From: Parvibaculum indicum
GTDB lineage: Bacteria > Pseudomonadota > Alphaproteobacteria > Parvibaculales > Parvibaculaceae
NCBI RefSeq assembly: GCF_011762095.1
Contig: NZ_JAASQO010000009.1
Span: forward strand, 124,001-188,000
Length of the DNA stretch: 64,000 nucleotides
Reading direction: 5' to 3'
Positions within the stretch are counted from its first letter, which is position 1. Each line of letters begins with the position of its first letter. Under the pieces are notes generated by a model that saw nothing but the letters and a program-made list of their open reading frames with translations, ran no database searches and was not told the origin of the DNA. Made by a program: the position numbers and the translations under genes. This document shows positions 26,471 through 32,015 of the stretch, one piece after another.

Positions 26471-28018
26471 CTATGCGGCGGTACCGAGACGGGCCCCCAC
26501 GGACTCGCGATAGGAAAGCGCCTCTGCGATATGGAGGCGCGTCACGCCTTGCGCGTCCTCCAGATCGGCGAGCGTCCGGGCGACGCGGATGACGCGGTGA
26601 TAACCGCGTGCGGTCAGGCCCATGCGCTCGGCGGCTTCCGTGAGCAGAGTACGGCCCGCATCGTCCGGCGCGGCGATTTTCTCGAGCAATTCGCCTTCGG
26701 CATGAGCGTTGAGGCTTACATTGTTCACCCCCAGAGACTCGAATCGGTCGGCCTGCAGCGCCCGCGCCCGGGCGATGCGGGCGGCAACTTCCGCCGAGCC
26801 TTCGGCGGGCGGCGGCAGGGAGAGATCGGCGGCGGAGACGGGCGGCACTTCCACATTAATGTCGAAACGGTCGAGCAAGGGGCCGGACAGCTTGGCCTGA
26901 TAATCCGCCACGCAGCGGGGTACGCGCGGGCAGGCACGTGCCGCGTCGCCCGCATGGCCGCAGCGGCACGGGTTCATCGCCGCGACGAGCTGGAAGCGGG
27001 CGGGATAGCTCACATGCGCATTGGCGCGGGAGACGACGGCCTCGCCGGTTTCGAGGGGCTGACGCAATGAATCGAGTACCTGGCGGGGAAATTCGGGCAG
27101 TTCGTCCAGAAAGAGCACGCCACGATGGGCCAGCGAAACCTCGCCGGGTTTTGCGCGCAGACCGCCGCCGATCAGCGCGGGCATGGAGGCGGAATGATGC
27201 GGCGCGCGATAGGGCCGGCGCCGGCCCATGCCATGGATCATGAGCTCGCCCGCGATGGAGGCGATCATGGACACCTCCAGCATTTCGCGCGGGGAGAGAT
27301 GCGGCAGGATGCCGGGCAGGCGCGCGGCCAGCATGGATTTGCCGGAGCCCGGCGGCCCCACCATGAGCATGTTGTGGCCTCCCGCGGCCGCCAGTTCCAG
27401 CGCGCGCTTGGCGGAAACCTGGCCCTTGATATCGCGCAGGTCCGGCGCGTTGGGCTCTTCGGCGGCCTTCATCGGCACCGGTTCGGACAGGATCTGCGTG
27501 CCTTTGACGTGGTTCACGAGCTGGATGATGGAGCGCGGCGCAAGAACGCCGCCAGGATTGTCGCCATCCATACCGGCCCAGGCGGCCTCCGGGCCGCAGG
27601 CTTCCGGACAGATGAGACCGCGCCCGCGCGCATTGGCCGCCATCGCAGCCGGCAGCGCGCCGGCGACCGCATTCACCGCGCCGTCGAGCGACAATTCGCC
27701 GATGACGACGAATTTTTCCATCTCCTGCGGGGGCAGGACGCCCATGGCGACGAGCAGGCCCAGCGCGATGGGGAGATCGTAATGCGAGCCTTCCTTGGGC
27801 AGATCGGCGGGCGCGAGATTGACGGTGATGCGCTTGGGCGGAAGGCCCAGGCCGATGGCCGACAGCGCGGCGCGGACGCGCTCGCGGCTTTCGCCCACCG
27901 CCTTGTCGGCAAGCCCCACAATGGTGAAAGCCGGCATGCCGCCCGCGATCTGCACCTGCACGTCGACGGGGCGCGCATCCACGCCCTGAAAAGCCACCGT
28001 CTCGATATGCGCAACCAT
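26471..28018 (-). CDS. comM: YifB/ComM family Mg-chelatase-like AAA+ ATPase
   Basis: The product has 515 aa. An N-terminal Lon-S5-like domain (VDVQVQIAGGMPAFTIVGLADKAVGESRERVRAAL, ITVNLAPADLPKEGSHYDLPIALGLL) is followed by an AAA+ ATPase with Walker A VGPPGSGKSMLAARLPGILP, Walker B GVLFLDELPEF, and a central Cys cluster (NPCRCGHAGDAARACPRVPRC). The C-terminus is the Mg_chelatase C domain. In naturally transformable bacteria the ComM hexameric helicase promotes branch migration during transformation. The family is widespread, and a transformation role here is unproven. GGGTGGGGG precedes the ATG. Its upstream DNA holds the left copy of the 51-bp direct repeat. Confidence 0.93.
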   Translation of the reverse strand: MVAHIETVAFQGVDARPVDVQVQIAGGMPAFTIVGLADKAVGESRERVRAALSAIGLGLPPKRITVNLAPADLPKEGSHYDLPIALGLLVAMGVLPPQEMEKFVVIGELSLDGAVNAVAGALPAAMAANARGRGLICPEACGPEAAWAGMDGDNPGGVLAPRSIIQLVNHVKGTQILSEPVPMKAAEEPNAPDLRDIKGQVSAKRALELAAAGGHNMLMVGPPGSGKSMLAARLPGILPHLSPREMLEVSMIASIAGELMIHGMGRRRPYRAPHHSASMPALIGGGLRAKPGEVSLAHRGVLFLDELPEFPRQVLDSLRQPLETGEAVVSRANAHVSYPARFQLVAAMNPCRCGHAGDAARACPRVPRCVADYQAKLSGPLLDRFDINVEVPPVSAADLSLPPPAEGSAEVAARIARARALQADRFESLGVNNVSLNAHAEGELLEKIAAPDDAGRTLLTEAAERMGLTARGYHRVIRVARTLADLEDAQGVTRLHIAEALSYRESVGARLGTAA

Positions 28019-28059
28019 GAAAAGCCCCCACCCGTCCCGATCGGCCGCCCGCTTCGATT

Positions 28060-28110
28060 ATGGAGAAACCTTCGCGTGAATCAGCCGTTTCAGTCAAGAA
28101 CGAAAAGGGA
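28060..28110 (+). repeat. Left copy of a 51-bp imperfect direct repeat
   Basis: This block matches 29924-29974 at 43 of 51 positions, with the last 23 nt (GTTTCAGTCAAGAACGAAAA plus GGG) identical. It lies 42 nt upstream of the comM-like start and immediately left of the A/T-rich 529-aa gene. Both copies begin ATGGAGAAA and are open for 17 codons in the same frame (13 of 17 residues identical, ending VSVKNEKG), though no full gene follows. Confidence 0.85.
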
Positions 28111-28140
28111 ACCTGTCAACAGGGCAGATCGCGCCCCGCA

Positions 28141-29730
28141 TTATCCGTGGCGCCGCCTCCCCACCCACGTCACTGCGAAGGGCACGGCGGATAGGATCGT
28201 GAGCGCCGCAACAAAGAACAGGCCAAGCCCCCAAAAACGGTCATAGGGCATTAGTCCTGCGATCATGAAGGCTAGGACGGCATAAACAACAAGGGAAACA
28301 AAGAATATCCTCTTCTTAGACTTGTGCTTGTTCCTCAGATCCGTCGCGATCAGGAAATATCCGGAAGCGACAAGCAAGACAAAAGCGATCGACAAGACCG
28401 CCACAGCTTCCAGTATTTCCGAAGCCGGGGCGCTGAAAATGTCGGCGCCTTCAACATCGAAGAAGAGGGACAGAAGAATTGCCGAAAGAAGATAGACGAC
28501 GTACCCGACAATGGTCGCCAGAAGGAACGCCGCATGACTCGTCCAGGAACTCCCGTCAAAGAAGGAGACCGTCCGCGCGCCCTTGCGAACGCCGCCTTGC
28601 CGGAGCGACTGCACGCCGGAAAAAACGATGAATGCGACACCGGCGAGAGGGATCAGCCAGTACGGTCCATAATCCGTCGCCAATGTCTTTTTCGGTTTTT
28701 CGGGTTTCTCGGCTTCGGCGGGAGCCGCCTTTTCCTTGATGGCGAACGGTTTGGAGCCCATCACCTTCTTGCCAAGAAGAGACGCCAGCTCTGCGCCCAC
28801 TTCATTCGCGGCTTCGGGTGAGTTGAAATAAAGATTAAAAGAACTCAGCCTTAATTTATAGGATCTCTTTTCCGTTGTTGTAAAAGACTTCGCACAATCA
28901 CTACGCTTTTCACATTTGATGTCGATCCGGTAACATTCGTTTTGTCGGGCAAAATTCACGGAAACAGCTTCTTCCAGACGAACCGAATGCATGTCACCCG
29001 TCGATGTTATCTTGTTTTTTTTATTACTATAATACTGCCGACCCTTGACTTGTATTTCCCCATTCTTCGTAACCCTGACAGCGCCCCTCGGATGTTTCAT
29101 GACGAAGAAGCCTCCGTCACAGACCGAGCCCGACAAATGTTTCCGCAGCAGGGAGTCCAGTCGCTGGAGCGCATTCGGAGGAAATACCGGCTCCTTCTTG
29201 GCTTCTACTGCCGCTTCCTGCGTGCTTTTGAACGGGATTACCTGGTCCGATTTGTAGGACGGAATATTGACGTGCTCTCGCACCGTATGATTGGTGGTCC
29301 AGCTCATAGGCTGATAGCGATAGCCGAAAGACGATTTTACATACTCGGTAAGTTTCGAGGTTCTGGAGCTTTTGGTACGAAACGAGTACCGAAAATTCTT
29401 CTTCGGGGCCACGTGCCACCCATCCAGCCATCCGCCCCGGCCTCCCGGCATAGTGTAGACCGCATAGCCGCCACGTTTCCTGAACGCGAAGAGAACCTGT
29501 TTGTCCTCACCATGAAATACCTGGCGGAACTCGCCAACCCGCAGCTTGTACCACCCTTTCACCTCCCAATCGCGCCAGCCGAACAATGCCAGGCCGCGGA
29601 CTGCCACCGAATAATAAATGTCCTCATTACCGGTGTTCTTGAAAGTAATATAGAAAGTGTCCGCTCTGGATATTGAGCTGTTCATAAAAAGGCACGAAAA
29701 CAAAACGGAAAAAAGAACTATTATTCTCAT
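28141..29730 (-). CDS. A/T-rich multi-pass membrane protein with an exported DUF1036-like N-terminal domain
   Basis: The product has 529 aa. It has a signal peptide (residues 1-23, ending SISRA), then a region resembling DUF1036 (FKNTGNEDIYYSVAVRG ... KGWYKLRVGEFRQVF). A second exported domain has four or more Cys (SVCDGG, NECYRIDIKCEKRSDC). A Lys/Pro/Glu-rich linker (about 340-362) is followed by about five transmembrane helices (about 370-522). AAGG/AGGTG lies just before the ATG. Base and codon use are visibly more A/T-rich than any neighbour, especially over the first 330 codons, which suggests recent acquisition. It is bracketed by two copies of a 51-bp direct repeat. The function is unknown; DUF1036 resemblance is tentative and confined to the N-terminus. 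Confidence 0.75.
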   Translation of the reverse strand: MRIIVLFSVLFSCLFMNSSISRADTFYITFKNTGNEDIYYSVAVRGLALFGWRDWEVKGWYKLRVGEFRQVFHGEDKQVLFAFRKRGGYAVYTMPGGRGGWLDGWHVAPKKNFRYSFRTKSSRTSKLTEYVKSSFGYRYQPMSWTTNHTVREHVNIPSYKSDQVIPFKSTQEAAVEAKKEPVFPPNALQRLDSLLRKHLSGSVCDGGFFVMKHPRGAVRVTKNGEIQVKGRQYYSNKKNKITSTGDMHSVRLEEAVSVNFARQNECYRIDIKCEKRSDCAKSFTTTEKRSYKLRLSSFNLYFNSPEAANEVGAELASLLGKKVMGSKPFAIKEKAAPAEAEKPEKPKKTLATDYGPYWLIPLAGVAFIVFSGVQSLRQGGVRKGARTVSFFDGSSWTSHAAFLLATIVGYVVYLLSAILLSLFFDVEGADIFSAPASEILEAVAVLSIAFVLLVASGYFLIATDLRNKHKSKKRIFFVSLVVYAVLAFMIAGLMPYDRFWGLGLFFVAALTILSAVPFAVTWVGRRRHG

Positions 29731-30075
29731 ACCACACCTTGAAAATGATGGCCGGTCGTAATCCTCAGAACTTAGGACGAGGCAACGGGTGGCGATTTTA
29801 GGCTCGCCCCTGAAATGACTGATGAGCGGTTTGAGAACCTACAGCGCGGACCTGCGCCTTGACGGACCGTGCTTTGACGCCCCTGAAAGTCCCCGCCTGC
29901 CTCTGCCCTCTCCGATATCCTGTTATGGAGAAAGGCTGGCGTGAAAGATCGGTTTCAGTCAAGAACGAAAAGGGTCCTTATGGACGATCCGCAGCGCGCA
30001 GGTGTTTGAGGCTTGCCGATGCGCTGCCACGATGCCATTTGTGGCCGGTTCGTCCGAAACAAGGTCTTCTTTCAT
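29731..30075. other. Non-coding gap carrying the right repeat copy
   Basis: About 345 nt separate the 529-aa gene (minus) from the small reading frame and MFS gene (plus). The first 100 nt are A/T-rich and presumably hold the promoter of the 529-aa gene. The right copy of the direct repeat is at 29924-29974. A frame from 29859 running through the repeat into the MFS gene is open, but it is out of phase with that gene and shows no family resemblance. Confidence 0.5.
29924..29974 (+). repeat. Right copy of the 51-bp imperfect direct repeat
   Basis: 43/51 identical to 28060-28110, in the same orientation, 1864 nt away. The terminal 23 nt are identical. The eight mismatches fall in four codons of the shared ATG frame, all changing the amino acid. 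Together the copies bracket exactly one gene. Confidence 0.85.
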
Positions 30076-30162
30076 ATGCCGATCCGCCGCGCCGCCATTA
30101 TTACAACCCTATTGTCACTCTTCATCGTTTCCCCGACATTGGCGAAACGGATCGGCGAGTAG
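30076..30162 (+). CDS. Possible 28-aa exported peptide or signal-peptide remnant
   Basis: The frame reads MPIRRAAIITTLLSLFIVSP, then TLAKRIGE and a TAG stop. This is a textbook Sec signal sequence: basic n-region, hydrophobic core and an SPTLA-K cleavage site. The mature end has just five residues. AAGG lies 11 nt before the ATG. It may be the surviving 5' end of a lost exported-protein gene, a genuine tiny peptide, or chance. It ends 21 nt before the MFS start. Confidence 0.3.
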   Translation: MPIRRAAIITTLLSLFIVSPTLAKRIGE

Positions 30163-30183
30163 CGGGAGGCGCGGACCGAAGGG

Positions 30184-31317
30184 ATGCGACAAGGGGCGAG
30201 AACAACCAGCATTGTGCTTGGCGCCGCCATCGTGGCAGGCGTGCTGGGCCGCTCGATCGAGCTTGTTCTTCCCGTCATTCTGGATTCGGCCGGGCGTGGG
30301 CTCGGCCTGTCCAATGCCGGACTGGGCCTGTTTGCCGGCGCCGAACTGGCCGGCGTGACGCTTTGCTCGCTTGCCGCCTTCCGTCTCGGCAAATGGCTCG
30401 CCCCGGGGCCCACCGCCCTTTTCGGCGCGCTGATGCTGGCCACAACCAACCTTCTGACCGGCTATGCCGACACATTGCTTCCGATCGTCCTGCTTCGTTT
30501 CGCAGCCGGCCTGCTGGGCGAGGGCGCCTTGCTGGTCGTTGCGGTTTCGCTGCTCGGATCGGGCCGGAACGCAGCCCGTGTCTATGCCGCGTTCATGGCC
30601 TTGCAGATGCTTTTCGGCGCCGGGGCGCTTGTCGGCTTCGGCATGGCGGATACCGCCGGCGGCTTCACCGCCGTGATGCAGCTCGCCGCCGCGATCTGCG
30701 TCGGCGGCGTGATCGCGGCCGTTTTCCTGCCCTGGCACCAGGTCATTGACGGGCACGACAGGACATCGGCCGGCGGGCCGGGAAATGCGGGCATGTGGAT
30801 GGCGCTCGCGGGTATGGGCATATTTCATATCGGCCTTGCCGGCGCATGGGCCTTCATGCAGCAAAAGGCGACGAGCCTCGGCCTGGATGCCGCCACGGGT
30901 GGCAGTATTCTGGCGGTGATGATGCTGAGCGGGCTGGCCGGTACGCTGTATGTCGTTCTGCGCGGGGCGCCGCGCGGTATCCTCACAGGCACCTGCATCG
31001 TCTACGCGGCGGCGGCGATCACCGGCATGTCGACCGGCAATCCCGTAATTTTCACTCTGGCGGGCATCACGCTGATGGTGGCCTGGAATTTGTCGGTGCC
31101 CGGCCAGGTGGCGCTTCTCGGGGTGGAGTTGAAGGGCACGGACCATCTGGCGCTTGTGCCCGGTTTCCAGGGTGTCGGCCTCGCGGGAGGCCCCGTGGTG
31201 GCCGGGCTGGTCAGCTCGCCGGGCCAGTATGCGGGGCTCGCCACGCTGGTCTTCCTGGCGGCGGGGCTCAGCATGTTTCTTTTCATAACCGCATCGCGCT
31301 ACGCTGACCGCTCCTGA
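30184..31317 (+). CDS. MFS transporter
   Basis: This 377-aa integral membrane protein has 11-12 hydrophobic helices and the two-bundle layout of major facilitator transporters. It starts with TTSIVLGAAIVAGVLGRSIELVLPVILDSAGRGLGLSNAGLGLFAGAELAG; the motif-A region between TM2 and TM3 is weak. The size is at the short end for the superfamily, like YbfB/CynX-type carriers. The substrate is not predictable. GGGAGG lies 14 nt upstream and AAGGG directly abuts the ATG, so initiation is not ideal. The next gene follows after 32 nt on the same strand, suggesting a two-gene operon. Base composition returns to the GC-rich norm here. Confidence 0.82.
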   Translation: MRQGARTTSIVLGAAIVAGVLGRSIELVLPVILDSAGRGLGLSNAGLGLFAGAELAGVTLCSLAAFRLGKWLAPGPTALFGALMLATTNLLTGYADTLLPIVLLRFAAGLLGEGALLVVAVSLLGSGRNAARVYAAFMALQMLFGAGALVGFGMADTAGGFTAVMQLAAAICVGGVIAAVFLPWHQVIDGHDRTSAGGPGNAGMWMALAGMGIFHIGLAGAWAFMQQKATSLGLDAATGGSILAVMMLSGLAGTLYVVLRGAPRGILTGTCIVYAAAAITGMSTGNPVIFTLAGITLMVAWNLSVPGQVALLGVELKGTDHLALVPGFQGVGLAGGPVVAGLVSSPGQYAGLATLVFLAAGLSMFLFITASRYADRS

Positions 31318-31349
31318 ATCGGCTATCCAAATTGGCTTCGGGGGGAGTC

Positions 31350-32015
31350 ATGTTCTACGAACGCTATTGCGCAAAAGTCATCACCGACATCATCCAGGTC
31401 GTGGTCGGCCTCGGCCTCGTCACTTTGCTGATGAACTATGTCTATGTCGGTACCGGCCATTCCACACTTTTGAACGATCCGGAATTCCGGTTGCGCTGCG
31501 TGCTGCTGCTTCTGACGATCCTTTTTGCGACCTACCACCTGATCGGCTACATCGCCGATTTCGCGACGGCCGAAAATAACGGCCACTGGGAAGTCCGAAC
31601 GAGAAGCCCGTCGAAAATTATATTGCTCTTCATGCTCGACCTGACGGCTGTCGGCATCGTGGCTGCCATGTTCGCCGTCCTCTATGTAACGGATGAGGGG
31701 TCGGTGTCCGATTTCGATGTGGTGTGGGCCGATCTCTCCGCCCTGGCCGGTCTTGCTGCAAGCTGGCACGGATTGATGCTGGTCTGGCACCTTATCGCCG
31801 GTCCCAGAGTGCGGGCCCTGCTGACGCATATTGCGATGGGTGTGAGCTTTCTCGTGCTTTCCTGTCTGGCCTATCACGACGGCAATACCGGTTTCTTCAC
31901 GGTGAGCACCGTCTTCTGGACGGCGCTGTTTGCAATTGTCGTTGCGCTTTTGTATTTCGTACGCGGTCGGCGGCTCATTCGGAACGCCATCGCGACGGTG
32001 GAAAAATCCGTCTGA
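31350..32015 (+). CDS. Integral membrane protein of unknown function
   Basis: The product has 221 aa with about six transmembrane helices (about residues 12-32, 46-67, 85-107, 120-142, 150-170, 180-202). It has no signal peptide and no recognised motif. The internal HWEVRTRSPSKI stretch and the basic VRGRRLIRNAIATVEKS tail are probably cytoplasmic. The frame extends six codons further upstream, but the ATG at 31350 has GGGGGGAG 3-9 nt before it. It is probably co-transcribed with the MFS gene; any partnership in transport is guesswork. It converges on the GFA-like gene with a 50-nt gap lacking a hairpin. Confidence 0.75.
   Translation: MFYERYCAKVITDIIQVVVGLGLVTLLMNYVYVGTGHSTLLNDPEFRLRCVLLLLTILFATYHLIGYIADFATAENNGHWEVRTRSPSKIILLFMLDLTAVGIVAAMFAVLYVTDEGSVSDFDVVWADLSALAGLAASWHGLMLVWHLIAGPRVRALLTHIAMGVSFLVLSCLAYHDGNTGFFTVSTVFWTALFAIVVALLYFVRGRRLIRNAIATVEKSV

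What the first reader, a model, noticed from the sequence alone, without database searches (positions are those of the whole stretch)
28060..29974. 51-bp direct repeat bracketing a single A/T-rich membrane-protein gene
28060-28110 and 29924-29974 match at 43/51 positions in the same orientation, with 23 identical nt at the right end. Between them is only the 529-aa gene, whose A/T-rich codons contrast with all neighbours. This looks like insertion of a foreign 1.8-kb segment just upstream of the comM-like gene, with a duplicated target or recombination flanks. No transposase or integrase was seen. All eight mismatches fall in four codons of a shared open ATG frame, so the repeat might instead be a small dispersed genic repeat.
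Basis: partly seen in the sequence, partly recalled or inferred. Interest (0 to 1): 0.55.

Follow-up and report, generated by a model that had tools for sequence, protein, structure and literature searches.

The report
Duplicated comM promoter flanking inserted gene
The repeat is two copies of the damage-controlled switch of a DNA-uptake gene (comM), most likely left when an unrelated membrane-protein gene was inserted beside it in two Parvibaculum bacteria; an unusual scar, but made of known parts.

Summary
The repeat is real: 44 of 52 positions match between 28058-28109 and 29923-29974, and its 23-base core occurs only twice in the 4.02-Mb genome. It is not a short target-site duplication or a dispersed genic repeat. 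It is the promoter region of comM with its LexA (SOS) box, on the minus strand; 26 of 28 relatives examined carry GTTC-N7-GTTC in that position. Copy 1 is comM's own promoter, box intact. Copy 2 has lost one half-site and is followed by a decayed piece of the comM start, 22 or more codons (E 6.9e-9 in sister genome G015, 0.002 in the window). The duplicated unit is therefore about 125-170 bp. Between the copies lies one low-GC gene of 529 codons, found in the genomes searched only here and in Parvibaculum sp. CPC32. Best reading: DNA carrying this gene was joined into the comM start and supplied, or was rejoined to, a second comM promoter and start, so comM stayed whole and a truncated relic was left on the far side. 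The route (one-sided homologous joining, a degenerated integrative element, or a local duplication) is unresolved; no integrase or IS end was found.

The parts
26471..28018 (-). comM (Mg-chelatase-like ATPase), intact, 515 codons
   Evidence: Pfam Mg_chelatase 1.9e-93, ChlI, Mg_chelatase_C; a match in 56 of 61 genomes, this one included
28058..28109 (-). Repeat copy 1 (P1): comM promoter region; -35-like TTGACT at 28097-28092
   Evidence: promoter model hit E 5.6e-9 (this copy is in the model); alignment with relatives; positions
28098..28112 (-). Intact LexA box GTTC-CCTTTTC-GTTC, starting 94 nt upstream of the comM start
   Evidence: the motif in 26 of 28 relatives at comM
28141..29730 (-). 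Inserted 529-codon gene: signal-peptide-like start and C-terminal transmembrane helices by inspection; no family assigned
   Evidence: homologue only in G015
29731..29847 (-). Spacer between the comM relic and the inserted gene; holds the inferred new junction
   Evidence: no comM hit in it at E up to 10
29848..29922 (-). Decayed comM leader and start (model positions 27-67 at 29889-29848; the part with the start codon is missing here but recognisable in G015, where the start reads ACG)
   Evidence: nhmmer E 0.002 in the window, 6.9e-9 in G015; alignment
29923..29974 (-). Repeat copy 2 (P2): second comM promoter region; -35-like TTGACT 29962-29957, -10-like CCAGCC 29939-29934
   Evidence: promoter model hit E 4e-7, copy 2 not in the model; positions
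29963..29977 (-). Broken LexA box GGAC-CCTTTTC-GTTC (distal half-site lost)
   Evidence: also lost in G015

Best explanation
Shown: the repeat is a second copy of the comM promoter region, and copy 2 continues into a decayed comM start of 22 or more codons, so the locus reads (minus strand) P2 - comM start relic - 529-codon gene - P1 with LexA box - intact comM. Inferred: an ancestor of this genome and G015 received DNA carrying the 529-codon gene. One side joined inside the start of comM, near codon 22-27; the other side ended in a comM promoter plus start, so comM was rebuilt behind P1 and a truncated relic was left behind. The simplest route is one-sided homologous recombination (homology in comM on one side, an illegitimate joint on the other) with DNA of a close relative, which I rate at 0.5-0.55; a degenerated integrative element (first rival, 0.2) would give the same order and is counted inside the confidence below. 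Inferred consequence: comM stays LexA-controlled from P1, while the inserted gene lies behind P2, whose box is broken, and is probably transcribed without SOS control.
For: None of the 28 relatives whose comM start was extracted has the gene, and 26 of 28 have GTTC-N7-GTTC upstream of comM. In the window plus 52 partly overlapping loci scanned with the promoter model, only the window and G015 have a second convincing hit; the next is E 0.031 in G024, in front of another gene, and E 2.8 in G004. Models built without P2 find P2 (E 4e-7 window, 3.3e-6 G015) and the relic (0.002 and 6.9e-9). lexA and recA of the same genome carry the motif 81 and 121 nt upstream, there in the opposite orientation. 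P1 and P2 of G015 agree at 48 of 55 positions, more than either agrees with any of 26 relatives (at most 45). The same structure in two separately assembled genomes makes an assembly error unlikely. Low GC and dN/dS 0.26 between the two genomes: foreign-looking and retained. One-sided homologous insertion is a described process (PMC3240628, abstract).
Against: No donor molecule, and no genome with the gene but without the relic, was found, so the order of events is inferred. The window's own P1 and P2 agree at only 44 of 55, no better than P2 agrees with G011 or G019 (45), so descent of the copies within this lineage rests on the G015 pair. Decay hides the true ends of the duplication. The window relic alone is weak (E 0.002; 0.01 in the larger search). 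P2 is no better conserved between the two genomes (92.3%) than the relic (91.9%) or the gene (91.4%), though better than the 88 bp upstream of it (76.5%); P1 has 96.2%. So use of P2 as a promoter is not shown. No expression data. Two relatives of 28 (G027, G031), and G003 with a broken comM, lack the exact box.
Confidence: 0.78

Rival explanations
1. Sub-route of the same reading: remnant of a site-specific integrative element that inserts in the start of comM and carries a replacement promoter and start, like SXT in prfC or islands in dusA; all but one cargo gene has since been lost.
For: The architecture fits: truncated native start plus promoter on the far side, rebuilt gene on the other. 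PMC8409611 (passages) reports this for a dusA island and cites it for SXT/prfC. comM is split in several relatives, beside a serine recombinase in G001 and G004.
Against: No integrase recognised in the insert (only the 529-codon frame was searched for families, and its weak 24-residue Mu-transpos_C match, 13.4 bits against a cut-off of 21.7, is below threshold). No homologue of the cargo in 72,556 plasmid or 50,697 phage records, nor by a two-peptide pattern scan of IMG/VR. Breaks of comM in relatives lie near codons 205-350, not at the start.
Confidence: 0.2
2. Local duplication: the gene already sat upstream of comM, the stretch gene-P-comM start was tandemly duplicated and the first gene copy was then lost.
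For: In G015 P1 and P2 are each other's closest match (48 of 55); the stretch upstream of comM varies in gene content across relatives.
Against: Needs two events; the repeat search of 27000-31200 shows no trace of a second gene copy beyond P2. In the window P2 is marginally closer to two relatives than to P1.
Confidence: 0.2
3. Passenger gene of an IS1595-family insertion sequence, a family found at or near comM in several relatives.
For: IS1595-type transposases lie between comM pieces in G004, G026 and the more distant G040, and near comM in G003.
Against: The 23-36-nt terminal repeats of three such elements score no better in 28110-29922 than in mononucleotide shuffles (best case 31 of 100 shuffles as good); no transposase recognised in the insert; a duplication of 125-170 bp reaching into the gene is not what an IS target duplication looks like (recalled).
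Confidence: 0.03
4. Small dispersed genic repeat unrelated to the inserted gene.
For: A shared short open frame across both copies.
Against: Two copies only in 4.02 Mb; the block is comM promoter on the other strand.
Confidence: 0.01

Closest known systems
LexA-controlled comM promoter of Alphaproteobacteria
   Same: GTTC-N7-GTTC, the motif given for Caulobacter (PMC12700426, passages); comM named with lexA and recA among core SOS proteins in PMC6473078 (passages, citing Erill 2004)
   Different: Here the promoter region is present twice and the second copy has lost a half-site
Gene-restoring integration (SXT in prfC; islands in dusA)
   Same: Target gene rebuilt with a new promoter and start (PMC8409611, passages)
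   Different: No integrase and no island recognised; a single cargo gene of 1.6 kb
Homology-facilitated illegitimate recombination
   Same: One homologous and one illegitimate joint could give this structure (PMC3240628, abstract; the application here is inference)
   Different: Donor unknown; junction sequence decayed
AbaR resistance islands in Acinetobacter comM
   Same: comM as an insertion target (PMC7508600, passages)
   Different: AbaR breaks comM; here comM is intact and the insertion is at its very start

Membership tests
Alphaproteobacterial LexA-box promoter (copy 1) | GTTC-N7-GTTC upstream of an SOS gene | tested here: met
   28112-28098; 26 of 28 relatives at comM; lexA and recA of the same genome too, in the opposite orientation
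Alphaproteobacterial LexA-box promoter (copy 1) | LexA binding and induction by DNA damage | not testable with these tools
   needs footprint or expression data
Alphaproteobacterial LexA-box promoter (copy 2) | both half-sites present | tested here: not met
   GGAC-N7-GTTC in the window; also lost in G015
Gene-restoring integrative element | truncated native start and rebuilt target gene | tested here: met
   relic and P2 on the far side, intact comM behind P1
Gene-restoring integrative element | element-borne integrase | tested here: not met
   one large frame in the insert; Pfam and NCBIfam give it no recombinase above cut-off
Homology-facilitated illegitimate recombination product | one homologous joint, one illegitimate joint, donor identified | tested here: inconclusive
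   structure compatible; no donor in the genomes searched
IS1595-family insertion | transposase and terminal inverted repeats | tested here: not met
   no transposase in the 529-codon frame above cut-off; ends of three IS1595 elements of relatives not found

The most novel reading that the evidence does not exclude
A foreign membrane-protein gene captured a copy of the comM SOS promoter that then escaped LexA by losing one half-site, while P1 in front of comM kept the box but drifted at its -10 block; comM may now depend partly on read-through from the inserted gene, so that insertion at this spot rewires a core SOS and DNA-uptake gene.
Probability: 0.15. Interest if true: 0.5.

Novelty: new member of a known kind. 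Interest (0 to 1): 0.3.

Why it matters
It shows that a direct repeat that looks like a transposition footprint can be a duplicated regulatory region, and gives a concrete case of one gene inserted at an SOS-type DNA-uptake gene without destroying it, whereas comM is split in several relatives. If P2 drives the inserted gene, it is a natural example of promoter capture with loss of repressor control.

Tried and rejected
Dispersed repeat: rejected, two copies only. IS1595 passenger: no matching ends. Fusion of the comM relic to the inserted gene: a frame is open across both in G015 (619 codons) but not in the window (54-codon frame ends at 29798), and the relic's start reads ACG in G015; rejected. 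A second promoter hit in G024 (E 0.031) stands before another gene. Structure of the 529-residue protein: model too poor to use (mean pLDDT 38), so no fold search was made. Family searches gave only sub-threshold hits and no solved relative. Genome searches for the protein: 2 of 61, 2 of 40 (order), 1 of 385 (class sample), 2 of 398 (phylum sample); the last includes a 67-residue match in G608, E 0.0013, in the membrane part, judged chance. The peptide-pattern scan of genome contigs found one relative, the G015 record. P2 conservation as evidence for promoter use: not supported. Papers PMC13384398 and PMC6813329 (passages) gave nothing used. Rows dropped: G010, G027 and G031 were left out of the promoter alignment, so 25 of 28 relatives are in it; the models hold 27 sequences, among them P1 of the window and of G015, but neither P2. 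Only 28 of the 54 other genomes with a comM match were extracted besides G015, since one search returned 30 loci.

Full report
Observation. In exact register it is 28058-28109 and 29923-29974, 44 of 52 identical, spacing 1865. Its ungapped score of 36 compares with a maximum of 17 in 60 dinucleotide shuffles of 27000-31200. The 23-base core, with up to 3 mismatches, has 2 matches in the 4,020,083-base genome, both here. The gene between has 51.9% GC and 61% GC3, against 68.6% and 80% for comM.

What the repeat is. On the minus strand, copy 1 lies just upstream of comM (26471-28018, Pfam Mg_chelatase 1.9e-93). Of 61 genomes, 56 have a comM match; 30 loci were returned, and I extracted the comM start of the 28 that are neither this genome nor G015. 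26 of 28 carry GTTC-N7-GTTC upstream; G027 and G031 do not. The box starts 67-113 nt before the start codon; G010 prints as -140 only because its contig ends 98 nt upstream, and stands at -68. Four further genus members with a broken comM were checked: three have the box, G003 does not. The motif also lies 81 nt upstream of lexA and 121 nt upstream of recA in this genome, in the opposite orientation. It is the LexA motif reported for Caulobacter (PMC12700426, passages), and comM is named among core SOS proteins with LexA and RecA in PMC6473078 (passages, citing Erill 2004). In all 25 aligned relatives the box runs directly into TTG, in 14 of 25 into TTGAC, as in P1 and P2; reading this as a -35 element, and the GCTAGCC-like block as the alphaproteobacterial -10, is recalled and not from a call. 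The long identical run is therefore largely the constrained part of a promoter.

Copy 2 is more than 51 bp. A promoter model without copy 2 finds it at E 4e-7 in the window and 3.3e-6 in G015. A model of comM codons 1-28 finds a second, decayed comM start after copy 2: positions 2-67 at E 6.9e-9 in G015, and positions 27-67 at E 0.002 in the window, where the part with the start codon is missing (0.01 in the larger set). In the window, with the 52-bp repeat excluded, the best local similarity of the two regions scores 38, which none of 1000 mononucleotide shuffles reached, the best being 37. Copy 2 has lost its distal LexA half-site in both genomes: GGACCCTTTTCGTTC in the window. From the outer end of copy 2 to the end of the model hit the duplication measures 127 bp in the window and 158 bp in G015; by eye it may reach codon 27.

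Distribution. The 529-codon gene is in 2 of 61 genomes (this one and G015, 89% identical residues), 2 of 40 of the order, 1 of 385 drawn from the class and 2 of 398 drawn from the phylum, one of these a short match judged chance. Several of the genomes are incomplete. The named record of G015 is Parvibaculum sp. CPC32, a metagenome assembly, the one hit of a peptide-pattern scan of genome contigs. There is no match in plasmids or phages; the IMG/VR scan used two peptide patterns and found none. In the 11 other relative loci compared, comM and genes matching the block beyond about 32.6 kb lie within a few kilobases of each other, with varying content between.

How it arose. P1 and P2 of G015 agree at 48 of 55 positions, P1 and P2 of the window at 44; the best agreement of any copy with 26 relatives is 45, for P2 with G011 and G019. 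The G015 pair thus speaks for copies that separated within this lineage or came from a very close donor; the window pair does not decide. Both copies were there before the window and G015 split (P1 51 of 55, P2 52 of 55 between the genomes). The order P2 - truncated comM start - gene - P1 - intact comM needs only one new joint if DNA ending in a comM promoter and start recombined by homology in comM and was joined illegitimately near codon 22-27. Integrative elements that rebuild the start of their target would give the same order (dusA islands, SXT/prfC; PMC8409611 passages), but no integrase was recognised. IS1595 elements, which do lie in comM in relatives, leave no recognisable ends here. 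I rate the one-sided homologous route 0.5-0.55, a degenerated element 0.2, local duplication 0.2; the identity of the repeat itself I hold at about 0.95. Rechecking the counts did not change these odds.

How it probably works now. comM keeps an intact LexA box at P1. The inserted gene starts about 200 nt downstream of the P2 -10 block, the box of P2 is broken, and a consensus scan of 27950-30200 found no minus-strand promoter, though it does not cover this promoter type. Transcription from P2 is therefore plausible but not shown; P2 is no better conserved between the two genomes than the relic or the gene. The protein has a signal-like start and C-terminal membrane helices by inspection; the predicted model is too poor to use. 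A dN/dS of 0.26 says the gene is kept.

Novelty. Listings of searches for comM with LexA and SOS, for comM as an insertion site (11 papers listed) and for Parvibaculum, comM, LexA or promoter duplication (8 of 74 listed) showed no title describing this locus; the library lacks most subscription journals. It is a new instance of a known kind of event.

Noticed in passing
L068, L069, L070, L071, L074, L075 (also split matches in G039 and G049): comM itself is split in several relatives: a serine recombinase beside the break in G001 and G004, IS1595-type transposases between the pieces in G004, G026 and G040, and one near a partial comM in G003. The pieces overlap by some codons in the alignments, which may be overhang.
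   Followed up: partly
window 28141-29235 versus 29236-29730: Mosaic divergence of the 529-codon gene from G015: codons 166-529 dS 0.10, codons 25-165 dS 0.67, against 0.32-0.59 in six other comparisons (comM and five neighbouring frames, one of them partial and three not verified as genes); suggests recombination within the gene.
   Followed up: partly
window 30013-32015: Two frames that look like membrane proteins (30184-31317, 31332-32015; no family hit above cut-off) stand where G015 has an SH3-domain gene; a 49-codon stub similar to its start remains at 30013-30162.
   Followed up: partly
window 28112-28123: CCTGT and ACAGG, inverted arms of 5 nt with 2 nt between, next to the LexA box of copy 1; kept in G015, absent at copy 2.
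   Followed up: no
window 29482-29496: The other GTTC-N7-GTTC of the window, inside the 529-codon gene; about two per 64 kb are expected by chance from the eight fixed bases.
   Followed up: no
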